A stretch of DNA of 10,078 bases from Candidatus Poribacteria bacterium (GTDB taxonomy: Bacteria > Poribacteria > WGA-4E > WGA-3G), in NCBI GenBank assembly GCA_009845505.1, contig VXZL01000372.1:1-10078 (forward strand), in the 5' to 3' direction. Positions 1-9,992 of the stretch are shown piece by piece. The translations under genes were made by a program, and so were the position numbers. Numbering within the stretch: position 1 is the stretch's first letter; the number at the start of each line of letters is the position of its first letter. A model generated the notes under the pieces. The model saw only the letters and a program-made list of their open reading frames with translations, was not told the DNA's origin and did no database searches.

Positions 1-149
1 TGTTCAGCTGCAGTTATTCGTAGTTGTTTAGTGACTGTATTGTCGTGTTTTTCTAATAGATCTGCTGTGAAATCTTCAAGTAATTCGCCTTTTTGTTTTT
101 TGGGGCTGCCTGGAGATGTTGCAACTTCAATACGTGCTTTATGTTCCAT
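1..149 (-). CDS. Partial gene, N-terminus of a possible Mrr-like restriction endonuclease
   Basis: Reading leftwards from an ATG at 149, the frame stays open for 49 codons to the window edge, so only the N-terminus is present. The start is supported by a GGAG (plus-strand CTCC at 156-159) six bases upstream. The peptide starts MEHKARIEVATSPGSPKK and continues into a segment of the form KGELLEDFTADLLEK...TKQLRIT. This resembles the opening helix and first strand of Mrr-type/PDDEXK nuclease domains (G-x-x-x-E-x-F-x-x-x-L-L, then a strand before the metal-binding Asp). The catalytic residues would lie outside the window, so activity cannot be judged. It lies in the same orientation as, and 140 bases downstream of, the DUF499 ATPase, so it is probably another part of the same locus. 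That the gene is real is fairly sure; the nuclease assignment is inference from a short stretch. Confidence 0.6.
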   Translation of the reverse strand, partial: MEHKARIEVATSPGSPKKQKGELLEDFTADLLEKHDNTVTKQLRITAAE

Positions 150-289: not shown

Positions 290-3200
290 TTAACCAAACT
301 TCAGTTTATCCGTGACCTTCCGAAGTGCTTCGTTTATCTTTTCCAACACCTCACTTGACGGGGGGCCTCCCTCAGCACTAATTGTGATACGAAACTTAAA
401 ATCGAGCTCCGGTGCGATTTCAGCCAAATCAATAACCGTTTCAGGCAACTCTTGAACTTCAAGTTCGGTTAACTCAGATTCAGCATGGCGCATCCACGCT
501 GGCTTCCGTACCCGGGTTTTATAAAATCCGTTGGTTAAGGATTCTGCATCAGAGGCGATTATGCCAGTCTTAATAGCCTGTTCTACAGCATAGCGGAACA
601 CATCATCAGAAATAGAAATGCCTCTTTTGGCTTCCAGTGTCTCTTTAATCAACGCGAGTGTGGGTTGTCCAGATTCCCAAGCGGATTCTGCGTCATTTCC
701 AATAAGGTCGTTCGGGGCTATAGTCACGGGGGCTTGGGAAACTTTTAAACCGATCTTGTCTGCTTCTGCAGGTGGACAGGGCCACGGTGGACTCCCTTCA
801 ATGAATTCAAAGCGTTTTTTATCCAGACCATCGTTGATAGCATCAACGGTTAATGACCAAGGAATTGGAGAGCCTTTGAGTAGTGCTAACGCGTGTATTA
901 TCTTACCGACAGATGAAGTTTCGTTCTCCCACGCGTCAGGCAGGTTGTTGTGGCTAAGTTCCGAACCGCTGATAGGTTCTAATGGCTTAAGCAATTCCAT
1001 ATCGTCGGTCATTTCTGCGTCAGGGATGTGCTCTTTAAGATAAGCTTTGTTGTCGCGGCGTGCCATGAGCAACCCCGCCTGAGTTGCAGACTGGATTGTT
1101 TTGAAAAGAATTTCGTCAGAGGCAAGTTTGGGAACATCGTCTCCTTTGAAGAATTCCCGAATTGCACCTACCGTAATCGGGAGATTATCGTCTTGCCATA
1201 ACTCTGATAATTGACCCGGACGCAAAAGTTCAGGACTGAGATTGTGAAGTTCCGCGTACGCAATTGGAACAATTTCTAACTCTTTTTTCCAAATATCTTC
1301 GTCCGTGAGGGATGCCTCGCGCCAGTAGGTTTGTTGAGATCCGTCTGGTCGGACAGTGCGTAACACAATTTGACCTTCTGTAACACCGCGCCGAAGTGTG
1401 TCAATGAATACTTGACGATTTAATAGTCTCGGCAAGCGTGGAAGACTCGCAAACATACCGTACAACCCTTGAACAGGCTTGGCGGTTTCGTCTTCTCCCC
1501 AGATGTCAAGGTAACTCTCTGGTGTGAGGAGTTCTGGGTCGAGTGAGGTCGCTAACAATCTATCTTCGTCAATCAGAGCTGCTTTCACGCGTTCAAAGGG
1601 TGAATTCGGCCCTGGGGGTAACAAACTCGCTTTAATATCGCCTTCTTCGTCAACAGCAAGCAGGACACTATAAGCGGCTATTATTGACTCTGCAATACCG
1701 GCTTGATCCGCTTGCTTACGTTGGGGCAGCAACATTTTTTGTTGTGGGTTGAGTAGATTTATGTCGTCTCCACTTTCGATTGATTCCCATCCGAGGATTT
1801 TACGAATACGTTGGCGGAGCCCTATCAGTCGCGAATTTTCGGGCGCAAGAACGATAACACTGTTCCGATACGTTCTGTTGAAAAAGGCTGCGAGCGATTC
1901 AGAGACGTTTTCACCGGGGACCGCCGTCCGTTCCGGCTCTGCAATCACAAAGCGAAGTTCTGGGTTTTCAGGGAGATCGGCGGCGGAGTGAGGGAGGGTA
2001 TGCACATTAACCTTATCTGAGTTTTTTCCAAGCGCAGCCTTTCTTATCCGCTCCTTTAAGTTTTCGGTGATTTGGTCTTCATTGATTCTGTTCATTGCGC
2101 GGACGTGCATATTGGTGAGATTCGGGGTTGTTCCCAAAGCCCAACTGTTTTCGTTTTCCTTGAGAAACCAAGAGGCTTCTCGCCACTCGGAGAGCCCTTT
2201 CTCAACAGACATTGGGTCAATATCGGCGTGTGTGAGTAGTAGGTAGAGATCTGCCAATTCTGCCTTTTGTCCTGCGGGTTGTGAATGTAAAAAAGTGGCA
2301 AGGACTGCGGCTTCAATCTCTCGGACTTTGAGCATCGGCAGGCCTTTCTGAACATTTCGAGATCTTTCGAGTTCACCTGTGAGGATGGGTATCCACCGCG
2401 TGCCTTCATCACAGGCTTTAACGAGCTCTTGAACGACATCCGAGAGTTCAGGACCAGTCGTAAGCAGCGCGCTCGGTCCGACAAACGCTGCGGGGTCTTT
2501 TCCGGCAGCCGCTCTCAGAATAAGCGCGAATGTCCGAAACATCCCACGCGTCCCTTGAAATCCATCCAGCTGTGTCCATTTTTGGTAGAAAACCTCGATG
2601 AGGTCCGGGTGAAATGGATAAGACTTGAGGAGTTCGCTATAGGCTTCCTGATCCTTATCCGACTCGCGGAGTGGCAATTTTTGTCTGGCTGCAATGAGAC
2701 TATCTACAACAGCACGGCGTGCTTGTTCCGGGGGAACATCTTCAAACAACCGCCGTCGGAGTAGTTCTGATACGTCCCCGCGTGAAACAGGTTCAACAGG
2801 CTTATCTAACCTATGAAATACCCCTTCCAGCATCTTTAGCACGCGAACACCGGTTGGATCCTCGCCGACAATATCAGAGGTAATGAGACTTGCTACAATT
2901 GCGGCGTTACTCACCTTCTCCACTGCCTGCGTAAGTGCTTGGAAGAAGTCTTGAAGGATCCCGAATCGGTTTGGATCATCATTGACAGCAGCGCGCGTAT
3001 ACATGAGTGCCTCATCAAGTAAGATGAGGGTGGACATTCCTTCCGCCTGTGGGATTTTGAGCAAGTCGCGAAGCGGCTGTTCCTGTGGGTTAATATAATC
3101 GGCTTCATGCTCGGCAACGATAGCGAGTCCTTTATCGCCGGCGAGTTGATACGCCAGGGCACCCCAGGGCGTTTGAACCCGCTTTCGTTTGCCGTCCGGA

Positions 3201-3637
3201 CTTACAACCGAAAGCCCTTTTTTCACATCAAATTCGTCGAACGGAAGGATAGCAACACGTGTCCGGGGCAGCGTCCCTAAGTCGCTGAATGCCATAAACT
3301 CCTGCACAGTGGAATGTGTTTGCAATTCAGTGCCGTGTTCTGCCAAGTGCAAGAGCGTGATGAGCGAGTGGGTTTTTCCGCCCCCGTAAGCAACTTGGAG
3401 CGTGATAACGGGATTGCCATCTTGTCCGGCTAACCGTCGGAGCACATCTCGCGCCAACGTCTTGAGATTATAGGTCGGGTAGGTACGGTCGAAAAAGAGG
3501 GTGGGGACTCGATAGACGTTGGGGGCATCTCCCGTTCGCACGGCGTAAAGGTCTGCTGCAAACTCAGCGAGTTCAAGTGTGCCTTGTCGGACATCATCTC
3601 TTAAAATACAGTGTTCATGCCATGCGTTATTGGCCAT
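290..3637 (-). CDS. DUF499-family P-loop ATPase of a DNA modification/defence locus
   Basis: This 1115-residue protein is a large AAA+/P-loop ATPase. Its Walker A motif, in the DUF499 form YGGGKTHSL, lies at about residues 84-92, and its Walker B (TLILLDEA) at about 203-210. Further on, SYPFHPDLI (about 339-347) and FQGTRGMFR (about 360-368) match the conserved block that supplies the sensor-2 or arginine-finger region in this family and in the related BREX ATPases BrxC/PglY. The remaining roughly 700 residues carry no motif I recognise; they probably form winged-helix and interaction domains. Family members are consistently encoded beside DUF1156 methylases in defence islands. A role as an ATP-driven partner of the methylase is inference. 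The ATG at 3637 has an AGAGGA site eight bases upstream and overlaps the preceding stop by 11 bases, indicating translational coupling to the MntA-HepT fusion. No signal peptide or membrane segment is evident, so the protein is cytoplasmic. Confidence 0.88.
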   Translation of the reverse strand: MANNAWHEHCILRDDVRQGTLELAEFAADLYAVRTGDAPNVYRVPTLFFDRTYPTYNLKTLARDVLRRLAGQDGNPVITLQVAYGGGKTHSLITLLHLAEHGTELQTHSTVQEFMAFSDLGTLPRTRVAILPFDEFDVKKGLSVVSPDGKRKRVQTPWGALAYQLAGDKGLAIVAEHEADYINPQEQPLRDLLKIPQAEGMSTLILLDEALMYTRAAVNDDPNRFGILQDFFQALTQAVEKVSNAAIVASLITSDIVGEDPTGVRVLKMLEGVFHRLDKPVEPVSRGDVSELLRRRLFEDVPPEQARRAVVDSLIAARQKLPLRESDKDQEAYSELLKSYPFHPDLIEVFYQKWTQLDGFQGTRGMFRTFALILRAAAGKDPAAFVGPSALLTTGPELSDVVQELVKACDEGTRWIPILTGELERSRNVQKGLPMLKVREIEAAVLATFLHSQPAGQKAELADLYLLLTHADIDPMSVEKGLSEWREASWFLKENENSWALGTTPNLTNMHVRAMNRINEDQITENLKERIRKAALGKNSDKVNVHTLPHSAADLPENPELRFVIAEPERTAVPGENVSESLAAFFNRTYRNSVIVLAPENSRLIGLRQRIRKILGWESIESGDDINLLNPQQKMLLPQRKQADQAGIAESIIAAYSVLLAVDEEGDIKASLLPPGPNSPFERVKAALIDEDRLLATSLDPELLTPESYLDIWGEDETAKPVQGLYGMFASLPRLPRLLNRQVFIDTLRRGVTEGQIVLRTVRPDGSQQTYWREASLTDEDIWKKELEIVPIAYAELHNLSPELLRPGQLSELWQDDNLPITVGAIREFFKGDDVPKLASDEILFKTIQSATQAGLLMARRDNKAYLKEHIPDAEMTDDMELLKPLEPISGSELSHNNLPDAWENETSSVGKIIHALALLKGSPIPWSLTVDAINDGLDKKRFEFIEGSPPWPCPPAEADKIGLKVSQAPVTIAPNDLIGNDAESAWESGQPTLALIKETLEAKRGISISDDVFRYAVEQAIKTGIIASDAESLTNGFYKTRVRKPAWMRHAESELTELEVQELPETVIDLAEIAPELDFKFRITISAEGGPPSSEVLEKINEALRKVTDKLKFG

Positions 3638-4337
3638 GGGCTTGTTCCTCTTCCAAGTCTTTGAGAATCTGCGCGATGATAGGTTGAAGTGGAGGAATCA
3701 TTTCCGTAACAACCTCCCAGACGATAGTGTAGTTAACGTCAAAATACGCATGGATAATCCGGTCCCGCATTCCTGCCATCTGTCGCCATGGCACTTGGGA
3801 GTACTTTTGCCGAACCGTTTTCGGAACATTCTTAGTCGCTTCCCCAATAATTTCAAGTTTTCGGACGACAGCAGAAGCGGTTTTATCATCAGCAACAAAT
3901 GCCTCGAAATCCATTCCTTCAACGAATATCTGAGCAGTACCCATTGCCTCAAAAATATCTTTCAGATAAAGTCGGTAGTTTCTCATAGGTGGCCCGTTTG
4001 TTTCGACACAACGTCTCGATTGGAGCTTGGTGAAGCCCTCTATGTCGATTTCAACACTTATCATTTCGCTGAAAACGGATGAACGCAGCTCTTCGCGAAG
4101 TGAATCCCGGGACACGACATCTACTTTACACCCGAGCTTGTCCTCCAAAAATTGCTCCAGCCCGATCATATCAAAGAGATTAACACCGTCGTCAAAATCC
4201 ACTAAGAGATCCAAATCGCTATCTGCGTGGAAATCTCCGCGCGCGTAGGAACCGAAGACGGCTTTAATCTGCGCCTTGTACTGCTTGCGGATTTTGTCCT
4301 TTTCTTCTGTTACTATTTTTTTTAGTGCTTCAATCAT
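3627..4337 (-). CDS. MntA-HepT fusion: nucleotidyltransferase antitoxin joined to HEPN RNase
   Basis: One continuous 236-residue frame carries both halves of a MntA/HepT toxin-antitoxin pair. Residues 1 to about 100 are a minimal nucleotidyltransferase: GSYARG at 29-34 followed by DLD at 41-43 gives an exact GSX10DXD motif, with a third acidic residue probably D73 in KVDVV. A linker of about 17 residues leads to a HepT/DUF86 HEPN domain from about 118 (MRNYRLYLKDIF). It contains the RX4HXY motif as R191, H196 and Y198. In characterised pairs HepT is an RNase that MntA silences by adenylylating that Tyr; here both would act within one chain. The start at 4337 has AAGGA eight bases upstream. 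The internal ATG at 3986 begins the HepT half but has no good ribosome site, so a separately made HepT is possible but unlikely. The two halves are normally separate genes. The stop overlaps the DUF499 gene start by 11 bases. Confidence 0.87.
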   Translation of the reverse strand: MIEALKKIVTEEKDKIRKQYKAQIKAVFGSYARGDFHADSDLDLLVDFDDGVNLFDMIGLEQFLEDKLGCKVDVVSRDSLREELRSSVFSEMISVEIDIEGFTKLQSRRCVETNGPPMRNYRLYLKDIFEAMGTAQIFVEGMDFEAFVADDKTASAVVRKLEIIGEATKNVPKTVRQKYSQVPWRQMAGMRDRIIHAYFDVNYTIVWEVVTEMIPPLQPIIAQILKDLEEEQAHGQ

Positions 4338-4407
4338 AACGCAATTCCTTAGGTATCAAACGGGCAATCTCGCTTACAAATTTTGGGGATCGCGTGCTTC
4401 TCTGTTA

Positions 4408-4752
4408 TTAGTTGAACAAGGCGATCATGGCTATAATTACAGCGGCGATGGCTGCACCAGTGGTGAAGACGGTCAACATTCTACCACTGCCTTCCTGCTT
4501 TCCCTCCAATTTGCCTTTGATCCATCCGACATCGTGCTTCAATTGCCCGACGTGGGTTTCAATAGCATCGAGCCGTTTTTCTAAGCGTTCGTTAGTGGTA
4601 TCAAGTCGTTTTTCTAAACGCTCGTTATCTGTTTTCCTTTGTGCCTCAATGGTATCGAGTTGTTTTTCTAAACGGTCATAGCGTTCTTTGCTTTGTTCTT
4701 TAATTTCTCCTAAGGCAGTAAGTATCATATTCTGAAAATCTTGATCTGTCAT
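4408..4752 (-). CDS. Small coiled-coil protein with C-terminal membrane anchor
   Basis: I do not recognise the family. From the ATG at 4752 the product is 114 residues. An upstream in-frame ATG at 4788 would add 12 residues, but the perfect AAAGGAGG (4761-4768) eight bases before 4752 decides the start. Residues from about 5 to 85 are strongly charged and helical, with RLEKQLD/RLEKRLD units repeated at 18- and 11-residue spacing, typical of a long coiled coil. After a short GKQEGSGR linker comes one hydrophobic segment of about 20 residues (LTVFTTGAAIAAVIIAMIAL), which ends almost at the C-terminus. This architecture suggests a tail-anchored inner-membrane protein with a cytoplasmic oligomerising stalk, loosely like phage XhlA-type or Bdr-type proteins. 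It ends in tandem TAA TAA stops and has its own promoter. It is the first gene of the block leading to MntA-HepT and DUF499. Its role in the locus is unknown; a membrane sensor or effector is speculation. Confidence 0.8.
   Translation of the reverse strand: MTDQDFQNMILTALGEIKEQSKERYDRLEKQLDTIEAQRKTDNERLEKRLDTTNERLEKRLDAIETHVGQLKHDVGWIKGKLEGKQEGSGRMLTVFTTGAAIAAVIIAMIALFN
4562..4681 (-). repeat. Three imperfect 33-bp coding repeats in the coiled-coil gene
   Basis: Units at 4562-4594, 4595-4627 and 4649-4681 share a plus-strand core of GTATCGAGT followed by CGTTTTTCTAAACG with few differences. The first two are directly tandem and the third is offset by 21 bases. Each encodes an 11-residue unit of the form (N/Y)(E/D)RLEK(R/Q)LD(T/A)(T/I). 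The similarity persists at DNA level, which suggests fairly recent internal duplication, and copy number could vary between strains by slippage without breaking frame. Confidence 0.8.
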
Positions 4753-4760
4753 CTCTATCG

Positions 4761-4768
4761 CCTCCTTT
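4761..4768 (-). promoter_or_regulatory. Consensus ribosome binding site AAAGGAGG
   Basis: The minus strand reads AAAGGAGG, then eight bases, then the ATG at 4752. It is the strongest Shine-Dalgarno sequence in the window and decides the start of the coiled-coil gene over the in-frame ATG at 4788, which lies upstream of it. Confidence 0.85.
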
Positions 4769-4798
4769 GGTGAATCGTTTCCATACAATGTATAGGGC

Positions 4799-4828
4799 AG
4801 TTTAACACGACTTGCCTGTTAAAGTCAA
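4799..4828 (-). promoter_or_regulatory. Sigma70-type promoter for the coiled-coil/MntA-HepT/DUF499 block
   Basis: On the minus strand a -35 box TTGACT (4823-4828) and a -10 box TAAACT (4799-4804) are separated by 18 bases. The -35 matches TTGACA at five of six positions and the -10 matches TATAAT at four of six. Transcription would begin around 4790, leaving a leader of about 40 bases before the AAAGGAGG site. This suggests the left block can be transcribed independently of the methylase operon. It is a sequence prediction only. Confidence 0.55.
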
Positions 4829-4919
4829 CCGAAAATCAATTGTAATTTCTTATGATTGACTATGATTTTCATGAGAATTATAGTGCGAATTATCGCGGCT
4901 GACCCGAATTTCGCGGATT
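4829..4919. repeat. Degenerate short-period intergenic repeat after the methylase gene
   Basis: The stretch directly after the methylase stop is non-coding in all frames I checked. On the minus strand it is a series of related words: AATCCGCGA, AATTCGGGTC, CCGCGAT, AATTCGCAC, AATTCTCATG, AATCATAGTC, AATCATAAGA, AATTACAATT. The AAT steps are mostly 10-12 bases apart. TATGATT occurs twice ten bases apart (4851-4857, 4861-4867). It has no strong hairpin with a U-tract, so I do not call a terminator. It looks like an eroded tandem repeat and may occur between other operons of this genome. Confidence 0.5.
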
Positions 4920-7850
4920 TTAAGAAATATCGTCAAATGTGAGTTGCCCTTCGGTTTCATGTGTGGGCTGCCTTGGAGATGAACCCCCACTGCTCGGTTC
5001 TCCGGGTTCATAATTGATGAGTGTCTCTAAAAGCGGTCTGTCGCTGGAATTCTGCGGACTTGTTTCGATGAGTGCCTGAACGACGGCTTTAAAAAGGGTG
5101 TTTTCTTGCAGGCCATACTCGTGGAAGTAGGCATTCATCTGTGCGCTTTCGCCTGCATTCCAAAGTTTCATGACTCTGTGAATCATGTCTATCATCGGAA
5201 TTCTTCCGGAGGTATGGGCATAACCGATCCGCTCTGAAGTACGTTCGGTGGATCCGAGGAGTTTCATGTTAGAACCGACCTTCTTCAGGATGCCAATTTT
5301 CGGTGCGCGAAGATCGTCAAGTGAAACCCCATATCCTTGTGCTAAGAGGATGCACTCACCTACGGGTGCGTTTTCTGTACCGAAGTAGTCTTTGTGCATC
5401 AGATAGTAGCGCGTCCATTCATCCAATGCTTCAGTACTTGCACCTTGCAGAACCTTGCCTAATGCAAAATCAGTGACGATACGACGTACCTCAGTCAAGA
5501 ATTCGCTAACCGTAAATGGTTCGCCTGTTTGTCTCCTGACTTCTTTGTAGCTGGAGTAACTTTCCAAGGCAGGTCCGATTGCTGCCCAGACGAAGTCGGG
5601 ACCTTGGATGCCTTGGTCCCAGAAATAGCGGAGGCGTTCCGTAATCCGTTGCTGCATTTCACGCTTGACTTTACCATAATGTCCATTTTTGGCATTTGCT
5701 GGGCGTTTTCGGCATACCATCCAGAGTGAAGTCGCGAGTGCAGCACTCCCCTGGGCTCTCATTCTCCGTCCTTGTTCAGTGTTGATCGGCCAAGATGCCG
5801 TAACCACTAAGTCAGATCCAATCATTGCCTTAACAAGGGTTTCCCAAGCGGCGGGATCTTTGTGGGCAAAAACAATCACTATTCTACCATTGTCAGACAG
5901 TGATCCGTTCGCTGCTCGAAAACTTTCTCCCATACCTTTTTCGTAAAACCTTTTTGCTTTATCATTATTTCCGTCAAAACGTCCAGCGTATTGAACAAGT
6001 TCATTGATCTTAGGCGTGAGTGGCTCCGATACAACACCGGAAAACTGAGTACCGATCATGCGGCGAAGCCATACAAAAAAGAAGTCAGAAAGATCGGCGT
6101 AAGGGATTAGGTCATAGTACGGTGGATCGGTGACAATAGCATCGGCTTTTCGGTCAATTGGATCAGTCGCAGATTGATGTAAAATTAGACAATGCGGTGT
6201 TTTCGTTGTGTGAGCTTTACAAATTGTTTCCAAGGAAGAGAGAATTTTGTTGAGACAGAGCTGATAACCGCCTCGCACTTCATTGGGAATCGCACTTTCG
6301 CTAAAATCCCACGTCATCGGAAGGGTATATCGAACAAAAGTATGACCTATTTGCTGCCCACTTGGTTCCCAGGCTATTAGGGTTGAGTTAAAATCCAGCA
6401 TTCTATCAAAAGCACAAGCCAAATATCCGTTAATCGCCTCCAACCATTCTGGTGGATATCCAATGTTCTCCATCTCTCGCTGTGCTGCGTGTGCCCACCT
6501 CACAAACGTCATCAGTGTCAGCAATTGCCGATTTGTGAATAGGTCTGTCCATTTCTTGAAACCGTAAAGTGGTGGTGAAATTGCTCGTCCAGCCCCGGAG
6601 GTATCACTTTGCGGTAATGCTTCGTCAGGCATCCCATGTAAAATTGCCTTAGCAATTGCTTTCAACTCCTCTGTTGGTATTTCTGCTTTATCAATTTCTC
6701 CTTGTCTCGGTAGGCGGTACTCCTTACTGTATTCTTCTTTATAAACGACTGCTGTCATCTGTACCCTGAGTTTGTTCTCATGTCCACACCGTTTGATGTA
6801 GTCCGCTGGTTGTTGTGAATCGCAAAACGGACAGATAGCTTTTATCGCTTTTGTGGCCGACATCGTGGGTTTGCCAACATCATCTACGTTTTTGGGTGTG
6901 GATATCTCAAAGCGGACATGTTTTGTCGTAAGATCCGGACATAACTTGAGAGCACGTCTGGCATTGATGATAACCTTCGTCTGATTTCTTGTCTTTTTGA
7001 GTCTGAGAAAGTCAGGACGTTGTCGATTTTCTGGGGTATCTTTAAGGGTTTTCTCCGTCTTCTTACATAGCCATAGTGTTTTGAGCAATGGAATAGTGGC
7101 CCCACACTGTGGATCTTGGCACGGAATGGTTCGCGCCCAGAGATAGGCGACCGTTGGTTTGTTGTCAATCACCGGATAGTATTGCACAAGTTCTTTACGG
7201 GCGTTTTCTAAGATCCATTGGCCCCATAAACGCACATGGTCGGAGAGATCGCCGTTTGTCAGGTTGGGAGGTTCCTCAAGGTTAAGGTCGGGGAGTTTCG
7301 CTGTTTTTCCGGCGAGACGTTGCGGATATTCAAGCATGCATTTGAGAAGAAACCACGCAACTGGGTTATAGTCGTTGGCTATAACCTCACAACCGAGTCG
7401 CATCGCCTCAAAAGGAATCGCTCCACCACCGGCAAACATATCCAGTACTTTTGGCGGGTGTCCATCGTAAGCCATTAAAATGAGTTCTCTGGCGATTCGG
7501 AGTTTGTTCACCCATCGTCCATCCCGATCTTTTGCGTCCCAATCGCCGTGTCCATTTTCGTCGCCCCATCGGGTCAGTGAAGCAATAAGATCGTTGCACA
7601 AATATTCTCGTTGTTTTTCAGGTAAAGGTGATCCTGAAAGACGTGTGTATTCCTCTTTCATCCTTTCGGGGGCATCGGCAGGATCTGGGAGTAGCGTGGC
7701 TATCGTCACAGCACGGCATGCGGCAAGTGGTCTGCGTGCCGGCCAAACGTGAAGTGAGGAAATATGTCCAGGGAGCGGATTCTTTTCGTGTTTTGAATCT
7801 TCGGAGACCTTTTTCAGTGGAAAGGCTTCCTCGATGAGTCTACGTGGCAA
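4920..7850 (-). CDS. DUF1156-type DNA methyltransferase (N6-adenine or N4-cytosine)
   Basis: This large S-adenosylmethionine-dependent DNA methylase has about 976 residues from the proposed TTG start at 7850. Its N-terminus (PRRLIEEAFPLKKVS, then LHVWPARRPLA at about 33-43) is the DUF1156 signature. The SAM-binding motif VLDMFAGGGAIPFEA lies at about 135-149, and the catalytic DPPYYD motif (575-580) marks exocyclic-amino methylation. Between them is an insertion of about 430 residues with possible zinc ligands: C244, C249, C262, C340, C343, C355, H357. The C-terminal 250 residues include NTEQGRRMRAQGSAAL, usual in this family. TTG at 7850 is preferred because AAAGGA (7859-7864) sits eight bases upstream and the product then begins where relatives do; ATG at 7880 is an alternative that adds ten residues. 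The start overlaps the HNH gene's stop by 11 bases. It probably marks host DNA so that the locus's nuclease or nucleases spare it. Confidence 0.88.
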   Translation of the reverse strand: MPRRLIEEAFPLKKVSEDSKHEKNPLPGHISSLHVWPARRPLAACRAVTIATLLPDPADAPERMKEEYTRLSGSPLPEKQREYLCNDLIASLTRWGDENGHGDWDAKDRDGRWVNKLRIARELILMAYDGHPPKVLDMFAGGGAIPFEAMRLGCEVIANDYNPVAWFLLKCMLEYPQRLAGKTAKLPDLNLEEPPNLTNGDLSDHVRLWGQWILENARKELVQYYPVIDNKPTVAYLWARTIPCQDPQCGATIPLLKTLWLCKKTEKTLKDTPENRQRPDFLRLKKTRNQTKVIINARRALKLCPDLTTKHVRFEISTPKNVDDVGKPTMSATKAIKAICPFCDSQQPADYIKRCGHENKLRVQMTAVVYKEEYSKEYRLPRQGEIDKAEIPTEELKAIAKAILHGMPDEALPQSDTSGAGRAISPPLYGFKKWTDLFTNRQLLTLMTFVRWAHAAQREMENIGYPPEWLEAINGYLACAFDRMLDFNSTLIAWEPSGQQIGHTFVRYTLPMTWDFSESAIPNEVRGGYQLCLNKILSSLETICKAHTTKTPHCLILHQSATDPIDRKADAIVTDPPYYDLIPYADLSDFFFVWLRRMIGTQFSGVVSEPLTPKINELVQYAGRFDGNNDKAKRFYEKGMGESFRAANGSLSDNGRIVIVFAHKDPAAWETLVKAMIGSDLVVTASWPINTEQGRRMRAQGSAALATSLWMVCRKRPANAKNGHYGKVKREMQQRITERLRYFWDQGIQGPDFVWAAIGPALESYSSYKEVRRQTGEPFTVSEFLTEVRRIVTDFALGKVLQGASTEALDEWTRYYLMHKDYFGTENAPVGECILLAQGYGVSLDDLRAPKIGILKKVGSNMKLLGSTERTSERIGYAHTSGRIPMIDMIHRVMKLWNAGESAQMNAYFHEYGLQENTLFKAVVQALIETSPQNSSDRPLLETLINYEPGEPSSGGSSPRQPTHETEGQLTFDDIS

Positions 7851-8733
7851 TTTGGTATTCCTTTGAATAAAAAGGAGCATCAAAATACCGAATCATACCT
7901 GCGTATTCTGCCCCTGGTGCTTTCATACTTTTTATGGCATTTATGATGTCATTCCGGGTTTCCGAACTGATGAGCTCGTTCTCAAGTGTTCCCCTCAATA
8001 TCTTATATTTATGGTAAGTTTCATATCTCCGGCCCTTGAGCTCCATGCGATTCAAGCCGTAGTACGCAATAGATGCGGCAGCAATAGGTTCAACAACTTC
8101 GGGATTTTCAGTGTTAATGATGACCTCGACTTGGAAATTTTCAGAGTTAGGCGTAATTTCAACTTCTCTTATCACCTCATCGGCACGCCATGCGAAGTAT
8201 TGAGTGGGTTCGTCGAAATAAGGGTTAAGCAAGAGTGGACGCTCCTGTTGATGTTGACGAATGAAGTCGTTAACTTGATTTGTATTCAGCGGGTCAGGCG
8301 CGATTGTTCCTGCTTTAGCATCTATAAAGTTATCTGGTGTATTCCATTGAATTTCAGGGGATGTCATCTTTCTATTTTGAATGGGGAAAGCATCCCGCTT
8401 GAAACTCTGATTGCAAAGCTGGCATGAAGCAACATAATTGTCGTAGCAATAGGCAAGCCACCAATAGCTGCTTTTGGGCCGATAATGCTCGACATCTCCG
8501 AAAGCGACAGCTGAAACGGGTGCTTCGCAATAGGCACATTTGCCCCCTGTTTCGGCGAGAAGTTGATTTTTCGCGGGTTTCCAACAATTGCTGTTGAAAG
8601 TGTGTTTTGCAATCTCACCGCGCCTGATACGTTTTTGATTGATCAATAATTCCTTCTCAAACGTTCTTTTGTTTCCACCGTAGAAGTTAAAGTGGATATC
8701 CGTTTTGGAACGACTTCTCCTCAAGCGTATCAT
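7840..8733 (-). CDS. HNH endonuclease, PtuB-like (Septu/retron-associated type)
   Basis: The 297-residue product carries an HNH nuclease core in its N-terminal third. GGKCAYCE at 63-70 supplies the first zinc cysteine pair (C66, C69). DVEHYRPKS at 80-88 supplies the acidic residue and catalytic histidine (E82, H83). SCQLCN at 103-108 supplies the second cysteine pair and the asparagine (C104, C107, N108), followed by a lysine and AFP. The EHYRPKS...YWWLAY pattern is typical of the TIGR02646/PtuB group, nucleases paired with an ABC-type ATPase in Septu and some retron systems. The C-terminal 180 residues have no motif I recognise. The ATG at 8733 overlaps the ATPase stop as ATGA, with AGAAGG seven bases upstream, so the two are almost certainly made together. 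Its likely role is nucleic-acid cleavage licensed by the ATPase. The stop lies inside the start region of the methylase, an unusually tight link between a Septu-like effector and a methylase. Confidence 0.87.
   Translation of the reverse strand: MIRLRRSRSKTDIHFNFYGGNKRTFEKELLINQKRIRRGEIAKHTFNSNCWKPAKNQLLAETGGKCAYCEAPVSAVAFGDVEHYRPKSSYWWLAYCYDNYVASCQLCNQSFKRDAFPIQNRKMTSPEIQWNTPDNFIDAKAGTIAPDPLNTNQVNDFIRQHQQERPLLLNPYFDEPTQYFAWRADEVIREVEITPNSENFQVEVIINTENPEVVEPIAAASIAYYGLNRMELKGRRYETYHKYKILRGTLENELISSETRNDIINAIKSMKAPGAEYAGMIRYFDAPFYSKEYQIAT
7859..7864 (-). promoter_or_regulatory. Ribosome binding site supporting a TTG start of the methylase
   Basis: AAAGGA on the minus strand lies inside the last codons of the HNH gene, eight bases before an in-frame TTG at 7850. 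No comparable site precedes the ATG at 7880 or the TTG at 7883. The methylase would therefore be translated by ribosomes terminating at the HNH stop (7840-7842). Confidence 0.55.
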
Positions 8734-9992
8734 CTACTACCCTTCTGCAATTCCGCCTCGATTTTTCGCAAAAGCTGCGTGTGTTCTTCAGAGGATTGCG
8801 TATTTGACCTACCTCCGGTTGGGAGATGGGTTAGTGACGCTTTCAATTGGCTAAGTTCCTCTTGCTCCTTGGATGACAGATCCACTTTGTCGCGAAGGTG
8901 GCGGTATCGATTCTTCATATCCTCAATCTCTTTTGACTCATCCGTATTCAATCCAAAGGCAGGGGACATCACCAGTTGATGTAGGAGGAGTTTGTTCGGG
9001 GCACCGGAAAACGGATAGAGATGAATTTTCCCCCTTTCGCGCGTCAGACAGTGAAGTTCGCCTTCGTCTGCCTGTTGTGCTGTCATAGGCGAGTGCGTTG
9101 TCACAACGAATTGAAAATGCGGCAACCATTTCTTGAGGAGCGAGAACAGTTTGCGTTGTCGCTTTGGGTGAAGATGCAAGTCAACTTCATCAATAAGGAG
9201 GAGCCCCTTTGTCGTGCGCGGTTGTTCTTTTAAGTCACCAAAGATTTCTAAAGTTCTGAACAATAGATCGCCTATCCAAGCTGCCATTGCGAGATACCCA
9301 TCACTAAGGCAGTGTAACGGCACAATTCCATCTGCTGTTTCAAACAGCAAGTGCCCACTCTGTTTATCAATACGGTGGAACTCTATTTCCGGTAGCAAAT
9401 CGCTGAGTACCTTTCGGACAGTTTCCAACCCAGGACGGTTTTCAAGGTAGTCAAGATCCATTGCCCATGAATCAATAGACGTTGTGGCTGCGTCGGGATC
9501 GAACAAAGTGGCGACGCGTTGTGCCCTTTTGTTTGTGAATCCTGATGTCTTTGTTCTCCGACCATTTTCCGTATTGAGCCGTCGGGACGCGCCAAAACCG
9601 AGAACAAAATAGTCGCTATCGTTCTGTTTTAGCGTGTCATCAAGCCATCCGAGACTCTTTTCGTTTTTCAGGATGACATCTGATCGAGTGTCTTTAGGCG
9701 CAATCCGTAAGCGGAGCTTGTGTTCTTTTCCTTCCGTTGTAACTAAGACAGCTGAGATTTCACAACCTTGTGTATTGTATCGAATCCAATCGGAAGGTTC
9801 CGGCAACAGATCAGCTATCGCGTCACTACCACCGGTCACCAAGGCGATGGCTTTCAGAAGTGTACTCTTGCCCCCGCCGTTTTCAGCGAGGAGCAGTGTC
9901 CACTTGCGGATAGTATCATCCTCGTTTTCAAAGGATAAGGTAACATCCGAAAAACATTTGACATTGTTCAAACGTATTGATTTGAGAAACAT
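8730..9992 (-). CDS. ABC/OLD-like ATPase, PtuA-like partner of the HNH nuclease
   Basis: This 420-residue SMC/ABC-type ATPase has every nucleotide-binding motif in order: Walker A AENGGGKST (36-44), ABC signature LSDGY (229-233), Walker B GLLLIDEVDLHLHP (263-276) and the H-loop VVTTHSP (296-302). The N-terminus MFLKSIRLNNVKCFSD is the usual first strand of RecF/OLD-type ATPases. There is no TOPRIM domain, which argues against a full OLD nuclease. Residues 350-420 form a charged helical tail (KEIEDMKNRYRHLRDKVD...) that may be a coiled coil. Being directly upstream of, and overlapping, a PtuB-like HNH gene makes it the PtuA-like subunit, expected to dimerise on ATP and control the nuclease. 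GGAG lies seven bases before the ATG at 9992. It is the first gene of the operon that runs into the methylase. No reverse transcriptase is visible, so a retron context would need sequence to the right. Confidence 0.87.
   Translation of the reverse strand: MFLKSIRLNNVKCFSDVTLSFENEDDTIRKWTLLLAENGGGKSTLLKAIALVTGGSDAIADLLPEPSDWIRYNTQGCEISAVLVTTEGKEHKLRLRIAPKDTRSDVILKNEKSLGWLDDTLKQNDSDYFVLGFGASRRLNTENGRRTKTSGFTNKRAQRVATLFDPDAATTSIDSWAMDLDYLENRPGLETVRKVLSDLLPEIEFHRIDKQSGHLLFETADGIVPLHCLSDGYLAMAAWIGDLLFRTLEIFGDLKEQPRTTKGLLLIDEVDLHLHPKRQRKLFSLLKKWLPHFQFVVTTHSPMTAQQADEGELHCLTRERGKIHLYPFSGAPNKLLLHQLVMSPAFGLNTDESKEIEDMKNRYRHLRDKVDLSSKEQEELSQLKASLTHLPTGGRSNTQSSEEHTQLLRKIEAELQKGSR

What the first reader, a model, noticed from the sequence alone, without database searches (positions are those of the whole stretch)
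290..9992. Composite defence locus: Septu-like pair, DUF1156 methylase, membrane coiled-coil, MntA-HepT fusion and DUF499 ATPase in one array
Six consecutive same-strand genes combine a DUF1156/DUF499 modification core with two modules usually known as stand-alone systems. Overlaps at three of the junctions argue for co-selection and not a random pile-up. DUF1156 plus DUF499 is an established defence-island pairing (from memory, Hma-type helicase-methylase-ATPase loci, which often carry embedded cargo). The exact combination seen here is not one I know as a named system. No helicase is visible, so the locus may continue to the left.
Basis: partly seen in the sequence, partly recalled or inferred. 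Interest (0 to 1): 0.8.

Follow-up and report, generated by a model that had tools for sequence, protein, structure and literature searches.

The report
Stacked virus-defence cassette with swappable parts
A bacterium of the phylum Poribacteria carries a likely anti-virus gene cluster, of a type already described, in which smaller predicted defence and toxin modules sit inside a larger predicted restriction-like system, at one chromosomal spot where relatives carry reshuffled, stripped-down or no versions of it.

Summary
The six genes are real and in the stated order. The window is one whole contig of a Poribacteria draft genome. It is an Hma locus (also called a DUF499-centred BREX-related, BR, system). 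The missing helicase HmaA lies on another contig, placed by synteny to the right. A seventh gene, a predicted Mrr-nuclease/STAND protein, begins at the left edge. Septu PtuAB sits between HmaA and HmaB; a coiled-coil gene and a fused MntA-HepT sit between HmaB and HmaC.

PtuA is tied to Hma: all 16 close copies found in 84 genomes lie in Hma loci. The small modules are not: 20 of 29 copies of the site that lack this Hma carry one or a fragment, and three such genomes keep scraps of HmaB, HmaC or the seventh gene. A same-species genome has the site empty. The parts have conflicting trees (a mosaic), and a hypervariable HmaB block, probably its target-recognition domain, varies apart from its framework.

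Septu embedded in Hma, and MNT-HEPN fusions beside these systems, are in print, so this is a variant of a known kind. The recurrent site, the swapping and the toxins that outlast the core are the interesting part. All function is inferred.

The parts
8730..9992 (-). ptuA, OLD/ABC-family ATPase of Septu type I
   Evidence: PADLOC PtuA1 1.3e-127; solved PtuA 8ee4 at E 1.3e-17; ENGxGK, Walker-B DE and TTHSP motifs in 16 of 16 relatives
7840..8733 (-). ptuB, predicted HNH nuclease of Septu
   Evidence: PADLOC PtuB1 1.6e-35; CxYC, VEHYRPK and N..CxxCN elements in 14 of 14 relatives; Pfam HNH below cut-off; weak match to solved retron PtuB, E 0.009
4920..7883 (-). hmaB, DUF1156 DNA methyltransferase (TTG at 7883 or ATG at 7880 as start)
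   Evidence: PADLOC HmaB 2.8e-122; FAGGG in 20 of 20 and DPPY in 19 of 20 relatives, the miss being a sequence cut at a contig end
6174..6713 (-). hypervariable block of HmaB (residues 391-570, just before DPPY), inferred target-recognition domain; variability reaches about residue 700
   Evidence: mean pairwise identity down to 0.29 (15 loci) and 0.43 (120 homologues) against 0.8-0.9 in most of the framework
4408..4752 (-). coiled-coil protein with predicted C-terminal membrane helix, 114 aa (ORF opens at TTG 4788)
   Evidence: AAAGGAGG before ATG 4752; heptad-like repeats; family with matches in 37 of 84 genomes
3627..4337 (-). MntA-HepT fusion: minimal nucleotidyltransferase + HEPN RNase-like toxin
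   Evidence: Pfam HepT-like 4e-29, NTP_transf_2 3.1e-13; GSx10DxD at residue 29, RDRIIHAY (Rx4HxY) at 191; two folded domains, linker 99-118 of low confidence, mean pLDDT 81.9; matches solved MntA-HepT structures
290..3637 (-). hmaC, DUF499 AAA+ ATPase
   Evidence: PADLOC HmaC 5.7e-99, Pfam DUF499 1.2e-21; GGGKTH in 20 of 20 relatives
1..149 (-). 5' end of a seventh gene, predicted Mrr-type nuclease fused to a STAND ATPase; continues beyond the contig
   Evidence: 59-70% identical pieces of L035:17184-19991 (Mrr_cat 7.5e-11, nSTAND1 6.4e-9); C-terminal piece on contig C151

Best explanation
This is an Hma (DUF499-centred BREX-related) locus with embedded cargo that likely protects the cell from phages in layers: HmaB would methylate the host's own DNA at a motif set by its variable block, HmaC and the helicase-nuclease HmaA would find and destroy unmethylated incoming DNA, and PtuAB, MntA-HepT and the Mrr-STAND protein would act as backup effectors when that layer fails. 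Shown here: gene content and order; the helicase with an intact GFDL...EVK nuclease motif in all 20 relatives; intact methylase, ATPase, HNH and Rx4HxY motifs in the window; the exclusive link of close PtuA copies to Hma; small modules that also occur at the same site without this Hma; scraps of HmaB or HmaC in two such genomes; conflicting trees of the parts; a variable HmaB block that varies apart from the framework. Inferred: that the variable block sets the methylated motif; that HmaA-HmaC restrict unmethylated DNA; that PtuAB cleaves tRNA (as shown for one E. coli Septu) or DNA and acts as a guard of the core; that MntA AMPylates HepT in cis and releases its RNase on infection. Because HmaA keeps its own nuclease motif in loci with and without PtuAB, PtuAB is read as an added layer, not a replacement nuclease.
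For: Identity: PADLOC HmaB, HmaC, PtuA, PtuB; HmaA model 7.1e-196 on the L058 helicase, 82% identical HmaA in the window's own genome. Effector kept in HmaA: GFDL...E[VI]K in 20 of 20. Septu link: 16 of 16 close PtuA hits in 84 genomes lie in Hma loci, 15 of 16 with HmaA upstream on the same contig; PtuA data do not reject the HmaA tree (AU p 0.23), the only one of 42 cross-comparisons not rejected at 0.05. Specificity block: central HmaB block correlates with its neighbour (r 0.61) but little with the N- and C-framework (0.19, 0.04), which correlate with each other (0.71), in 153 locus pairs; block and framework reject each other's trees (p 0.0025 and 1.8e-5). Modular site: 16 of 20 close-Hma genomes have AMPP and HmaA on one contig; same-species genome G055 has AMPP followed by the right flank after 37 bases, and its 98% identity with G000 stops at the AMPP/HmaA border. 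Literature: one E. coli Septu cleaves tRNA-Tyr and needs both active sites (PMC13096335, passages); nuclease and HEPN backup effectors proposed for these systems (PMC12839542, sections 29 and 35 part 1).
Against: No activity was tested anywhere. NCBIfam cut-offs are not met by any of the proteins (for instance PtuA 117 of 500 bits, MntA 48 of 60, HepT 33 of 60, DUF1156 182 of 1000). Pfam HNH in PtuB is below its cut-off and the PtuB model was too poor to use (pLDDT 54.6). A 2013 survey holds that HEPN domains fused to MNT usually lack the catalytic residues and are regulatory (PMC3710099, passages); here the motif is present, but 4 of the 22 fused rows lack it in place. PtuB is absent in 2 of the 16 PtuA loci (G056, G081). 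Four of the 20 close-Hma genomes have no PtuA. Two of 20 (G021, G045) have Hma away from the AMPP site. All five locus genes tested, HmaA and PtuA too, reject the tree of the flanking genes. Within the 120-protein set even the two ends of the HmaB framework correlate only weakly (r 0.18), so range restriction adds to the low correlation there.
Confidence: 0.6

Rival explanations
1. It is two or three independent systems that share a chromosomal hotspot: a complete Hma locus, a stand-alone Septu and a stand-alone toxin-antitoxin module, with no functional link between them.
For: MntA, HepT, PIN/C18 and coiled-coil modules occur at the same site without this Hma in 20 of 29 closed sites, counting fragments. 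Cargo elsewhere is varied: a TIR-STAND gene between HmaA and HmaB (L028), OLD-ABC + DUF4276 (L049, L050) or an LmuB-like ATPase (L055) between HmaB and HmaC, RelE/HigA in one of four plasmid loci looked at. Trees of the parts conflict.
Against: PtuA behaves differently from the small modules: 16 of 16 close copies are in Hma loci, and its data fit the HmaA tree.
Confidence: 0.3
2. The fused MntA-HepT is a domesticated regulatory nucleotidyltransferase, with HepT serving only as a substrate-binding or scaffold domain, not a toxin.
For: Stated as the usual fate of HEPN-MNT fusions (PMC3710099, passages); 4 of 22 fused rows lack the motif in place; MntA occurs alone at many sites.
Against: GSx10DxD and Rx4HxY are intact in the window and 18 of 22 fused rows keep both in place.
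Confidence: 0.3
3. The embedded small modules are parasites of the operon's gaps, or slow-to-decay leftovers, without any role in defence or retention.
For: Several copies are broken: MntA with internal stops in G078 and G080, broken HepT in G036, short MntA or HepT fragments in G049 and G031.
Against: Full-length fused copies with intact motifs persist in several species, and toxin modules stay where the core has been reduced to scraps (G052, G064).
Confidence: 0.25

Closest known systems
Hma system (Payne et al. 2021, PMC8565338), with embedded Septu
   Same: HmaA helicase, HmaB methylase and HmaC ATPase, with Septu type I inside; PADLOC models hit with E below 1e-98
   Different: Also holds a fused MntA-HepT, a coiled-coil gene and a predicted Mrr-STAND gene; the paper calls HmaB an m5C methylase, while DPPY and the 2026 paper point to N6-adenine
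Type-1 DUF499-centred BREX-related (BR) system (PMC12839542, 2026)
   Same: DUF499 ATPase, DUF1156 methylase, SNF2-type helicase with a C-terminal nuclease motif; OLD-ABC + HNH dyads and HEPN-MNT fusions are listed there as backup effectors
   Different: No HEPN on the N-terminus of HmaC; the site, the mosaic trees and the core scraps reported here were not seen in the passages and sections read
Septu type I (PtuAB), e.g. PDB 8ee4 and Septu EcB88 (PMC13096335)
   Same: ATPase + HNH pair, overlapping genes, catalytic motifs
   Different: Always inside Hma among the close Poribacteria copies found; PtuB only weakly similar to solved PtuB; two loci have PtuA without PtuB
MntA-HepT type VII toxin-antitoxin; PADLOC candidate PDC-S09
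   Same: GSx10DxD nucleotidyltransferase and Rx4HxY HEPN; fold matches 7bxo and 1wot
   Different: One fused polypeptide; below both NCBIfam cut-offs
DarTG2 embedded in a type I restriction-modification island (PMC12255303)
   Same: Toxin-antitoxin embedded between subunit genes of a restriction system
   Different: Different restriction system and toxin; has a dedicated repressor (RptR), not looked for here

Membership tests
Hma / Type-1 BR system | DUF1156 methylase (HmaB) with motifs I and IV | tested here: met
   PADLOC 2.8e-122; FAGGG, DPPY
Hma / Type-1 BR system | DUF499 AAA+ ATPase (HmaC) with Walker motifs | tested here: met
   PADLOC 5.7e-99; GGGKTH
Hma / Type-1 BR system | SF2/SNF2 helicase (HmaA) in the same locus | tested here: met
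   On contig C234 of the same genome, next to the AMPP flank; directly upstream of PtuA in relatives; the C234-C319 join itself is inferred
Hma / Type-1 BR system | C-terminal PD-(D/E)XK nuclease motif on the helicase | tested here: met
   NOV_C 1.7e-21 on L058 HmaA; GFDL...E[VI]K in 20 of 20, window genome included
Hma / Type-1 BR system | N-terminal HEPN on HmaC (a subset only, PMC12839542) | tested here: not met
   No HEPN domain found in HmaC by Pfam; not a required feature
Hma / Type-1 BR system | NCBIfam equivalog cut-offs for anti-phage DUF1156 / DUF499 | tested here: not met
   182 of 1000 and 118 of 1200 bits; these models fit another subfamily better
Hma / Type-1 BR system | Methylation-dependent phage restriction | not testable with these tools
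   Needs methylome and phage assays
Septu type I | PtuA OLD/ABC ATPase with Walker motifs | tested here: met
Septu type I | Adjacent PtuB HNH nuclease | tested here: met
   PADLOC 1.6e-35, catalytic elements; Pfam HNH below cut-off, fold not confirmed
Septu type I | tRNA or DNA cleavage on infection | not testable with these tools
   -
MntA-HepT (type VII TA) | GSx10DxD nucleotidyltransferase and Rx4HxY HEPN RNase motif | tested here: met
MntA-HepT (type VII TA) | Two separate proteins | tested here: not met
   Fused in the window; separate in for instance G079 and G068
MntA-HepT (type VII TA) | HepT AMPylation by MntA, RNase toxicity | not testable with these tools
   -

The most novel reading that the evidence does not exclude
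A cassette-exchange immune locus: at one chromosomal site Poribacteria keep a restriction-like core whose specificity domain and effectors are swapped piecemeal between species, while toxin modules lodged in its gaps act as retention devices. Deletions that take the core but spare the toxins survive, which would explain sites that hold only toxins plus scraps of HmaB and HmaC.
Probability: 0.3. Interest if true: 0.72.

Novelty: new variant of a known kind. Interest (0 to 1): 0.5.

Why it matters
Embedding of one defence system inside another is known, but why it happens is open. This site gives a natural series in one bacterial family: full stack, partial stack, toxins only, core scraps with toxins, and empty. 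It separates cargo bound to the core (Septu) from cargo bound to the site (small toxin modules), and it offers a direct test of whether embedded toxins protect a defence locus from deletion. The modular HmaB block also makes the unproven specificity of Hma testable by reading methylomes.

Tried and rejected
Chance pile-up of genes: rejected, the order recurs in relatives.

Sequencing or assembly error as the source of the MntA-HepT fusion: rejected, the fused frame recurs in 22 aligned rows.

Septu as the replacement nuclease for a dead HmaA: rejected, the HmaA nuclease motif is intact in 20 of 20 loci with and without PtuAB.

Simple vertical inheritance of HmaA and PtuA: their distances correlate with the flanking sigma-factor gene (r 0.72 and 0.59), which first suggested it, but tree tests reject the flank tree for all five genes, so the claim was dropped.

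Empty site with both junctions in the window's own genome: only the left junction could be fixed; the right one is broken by contig ends and by the seventh gene.

Rfam and tRNA search of the window: no hit. Repeats that might mediate the module swapping: no long ones found in the window. A weak PtuB-like hit at the G079 site (28%, E 0.005) was disregarded; the reversed-sequence control gave 0 hits. The PtuB structure model was too poor to search.

Two first-pass regular expressions (HmaA Walker A, MntA) were wrong, failed on the window itself and were replaced. In one search the HepT pattern also matched P0145 at a wrong place; it is counted as lacking the motif.

Selection made by hand: 28 of 65 hits went into A3; 18 of the 120 listed HmaB homologues (window included as one) into A1; the 120 are the best of 7784. 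Sites were fetched for 36 of the 39 genomes of the family without the close Hma (G032 and G050 have no AMPP hit, G060 has it at a contig end); 29 of the 36 are closed on both sides.
Full report
WHAT IS THERE. The window is the whole of contig C319 (10,078 bases) of a Poribacteria draft genome of 691 contigs, 86.5% complete (the phylum comes from named near relatives). Six minus-strand genes fill it, in transcription order: ptuA, ptuB, hmaB (DUF1156), a coiled-coil gene, a fused mntA-hepT, and hmaC (DUF499). A seventh gene starts at 149 and leaves the window on the left; in L035 its relative is a 936-aa protein with an Mrr-type nuclease domain and a STAND ATPase, directly downstream of hmaC. 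The C-terminal piece of this gene is on contig C151 of the same genome, beside the HEAT-repeat, methyltransferase and sigma-factor genes that form the right flank of the site in relatives. The contigs do not overlap, so the join is inferred from relatives.

NOT CHANCE. A search of 84 genomes of the phylum found a DUF1156 match in 50 (E up to 0.001) and a close one (64-100% identity) in 20. Annotation of these loci and of the loci from named genomes gave the recurring order AMPP, HmaA, PtuA, PtuB, HmaB, HmaC, right flank, with variable genes between HmaA and HmaB and between HmaB and HmaC.

THE HELICASE AND ITS NUCLEASE. The L058 helicase hits PADLOC HmaA with E 7.1e-196 and carries a NOV_C/DUF3883 domain. 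The motif GFDL...E[VI]K is present in 20 of 20 HmaA sequences, with or without PtuAB in the locus. PtuAB is therefore not standing in for a dead core nuclease.

SEPTU IS TIED TO THE CORE. At E up to 1e-40, 16 of 84 genomes have a PtuA match, one each, and all 16 lie in the Hma locus. In 15 of 16 HmaA is upstream on the same contig (in two of these a PIN and a C18 gene come between), and in the window's own genome HmaA is on C234. Four of the 20 close-Hma genomes lack PtuA (G027, G028, G045, G065). PtuB is missing in two PtuA loci; one of them, G056, has another gene (C24) in its place. More distant PtuA families were outside this search.

THE SMALL MODULES ARE TIED TO THE SITE. In 16 of 20 close-Hma genomes AMPP and HmaA share a contig (for G058 only the end of AMPP is there); two are cut by contig ends (G051, G056) and two have Hma elsewhere (G021, G045). 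Of the 39 genomes of the family without the close Hma, 36 were fetched around AMPP and 29 are closed on both sides. Of these 29, 20 carry MntA, HepT, PIN, C18 or the coiled coil (counting two short fragments, G049 and G031) and 9 carry none. Fused MntA-HepT at the site without this Hma occurs in G072 and G077. The coiled-coil family has matches in 37 of 84 genomes, mostly away from the site. The same-species genome G055 has only 37 bases between the AMPP match and the right flank, and its 98% nucleotide identity to G000 ends at the AMPP/HmaA border.

SCRAPS OF THE CORE. Two of the closed sites keep pieces of the core: G052 has the C-terminal end of HmaB and an internal piece of HmaC, in the order PIN, C18, HmaB piece, coiled coil, HmaC piece; G064 has the C-terminal end of HmaC behind MntA, PIN and C18. 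A third genome, G035, whose contig ends nearby, keeps 33 residues of the Mrr-STAND N-terminus. The reversed-sequence control gave 0 hits. In G052 and G064 at least, the core was there and was lost while toxin-type modules stayed. Whether the same happened at the other module-only sites is not shown.

MOSAIC. In 11 loci, trees of the flanks, HmaA, PtuA, PtuB, HmaB framework, HmaB variable block and HmaC were tested against each other: 41 of 42 cross-comparisons are rejected at 0.05 by the AU test; only the PtuA data accept another part's tree, that of HmaA (p 0.23). In a 12-taxon test all five genes reject the flank tree (PtuB with 11 taxa). One simple model (LG+G4) was used, so the exact p-values should not be leaned on.

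THE HMAB BLOCK. Residues 391-570, just before DPPY, fall to a mean pairwise identity of 0.29 (15 loci) or 0.43 (120 homologues) in the worst 30-residue block, against 0.8-0.9 in most of the framework. In 153 pairs of loci the block follows its neighbour 600-700 (r 0.61) and not the N- or C-terminal framework (0.19, 0.04), while these follow each other (0.71). In 7140 pairs of the 120 homologues block and framework are uncorrelated (r -0.02); there the framework ends themselves correlate only at 0.18, so part of this is range restriction. Its position fits the target-recognition insert described for these methylases (PMC12839542, section 29). That it sets the motif is inferred.

THE FUSION. MntA and HepT motifs are intact in the window; 18 of 22 fused rows keep both in place. 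The model has two folded domains joined by a low-confidence linker (mean pLDDT 81.9) and matches solved MntA-HepT structures. A 2013 survey says that fused HEPN domains are usually inactive (PMC3710099, passages), so the intact motif here is worth an assay.

WHAT IS KNOWN. Hma was defined in 2021 because a three-gene operon sat so often with Septu type I (PMC8565338, passages). A 2025 paper cites 'Septu in Hma systems' as an example of embedding (PMC12255303, passages), and 'Hma-embedded candidates' is an established label (PMC12988326, passages); the 2024 preprint behind both is not held and was not read. The 2026 study that renames these systems BR lists OLD-ABC + HNH dyads and HEPN-MNT fusions as backup effectors (PMC12839542, passages, section 29, section 35 part 1). 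One E. coli Septu cleaves tRNA-Tyr and needs both active sites (PMC13096335, passages). I saw no description of this full combination, of the Poribacteria site or of the core scraps in the listings and passages from searches; supplements could not be read, so absence from print is not established.

VERDICT. A layered Hma locus, a variant of a known kind. The most useful part is evolutionary: a recurrent site, a core whose parts are exchanged, Septu that goes with the core, and toxin-type modules that stay when the core is lost. All functional steps are inferred.

Noticed in passing
L038 and L042 (OY282383.1): HmaB relatives 73% and 70% identical to the window's lie in this chromosome without a recognisable HmaA or HmaC in the flanks searched: possible solitary methylases. 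The same chromosome has a full locus at the AMPP site (L047).
   Followed up: no
G000 contigs C459 and C331 (L030, L031): Two further, distant DUF1156/DUF499 pairs (about 28% identity) in the window's own genome.
   Followed up: partly
L028, L029, L049, L050, L055: Other cargo in the same two gaps: TIR-STAND; metallophosphatase + GHKL ATPase; OLD-ABC + DUF4276 (HEC-01); an LmuB-like ATPase with two unknown genes.
   Followed up: partly
L058:9160-9990, L048:8898-9986, L034:8521-9408: Three gene families (C17, C24, C28) between HmaA and HmaB with no Pfam or PADLOC hit; C24 takes the place of PtuB in G056.
   Followed up: partly
L114 (Planktothrix agardhii plasmid p3) 4748-14786: RelE/ParE toxin and HigA antitoxin genes between the helicase and DUF1156 genes of an Hma-like locus.
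   Followed up: no
L051:6947-7781, L074, L082: A PIN-domain gene with a small partner (C18, weak DUF3896 match) recurs at the site with and without Hma; it looks like a toxin-antitoxin pair.
   Followed up: partly
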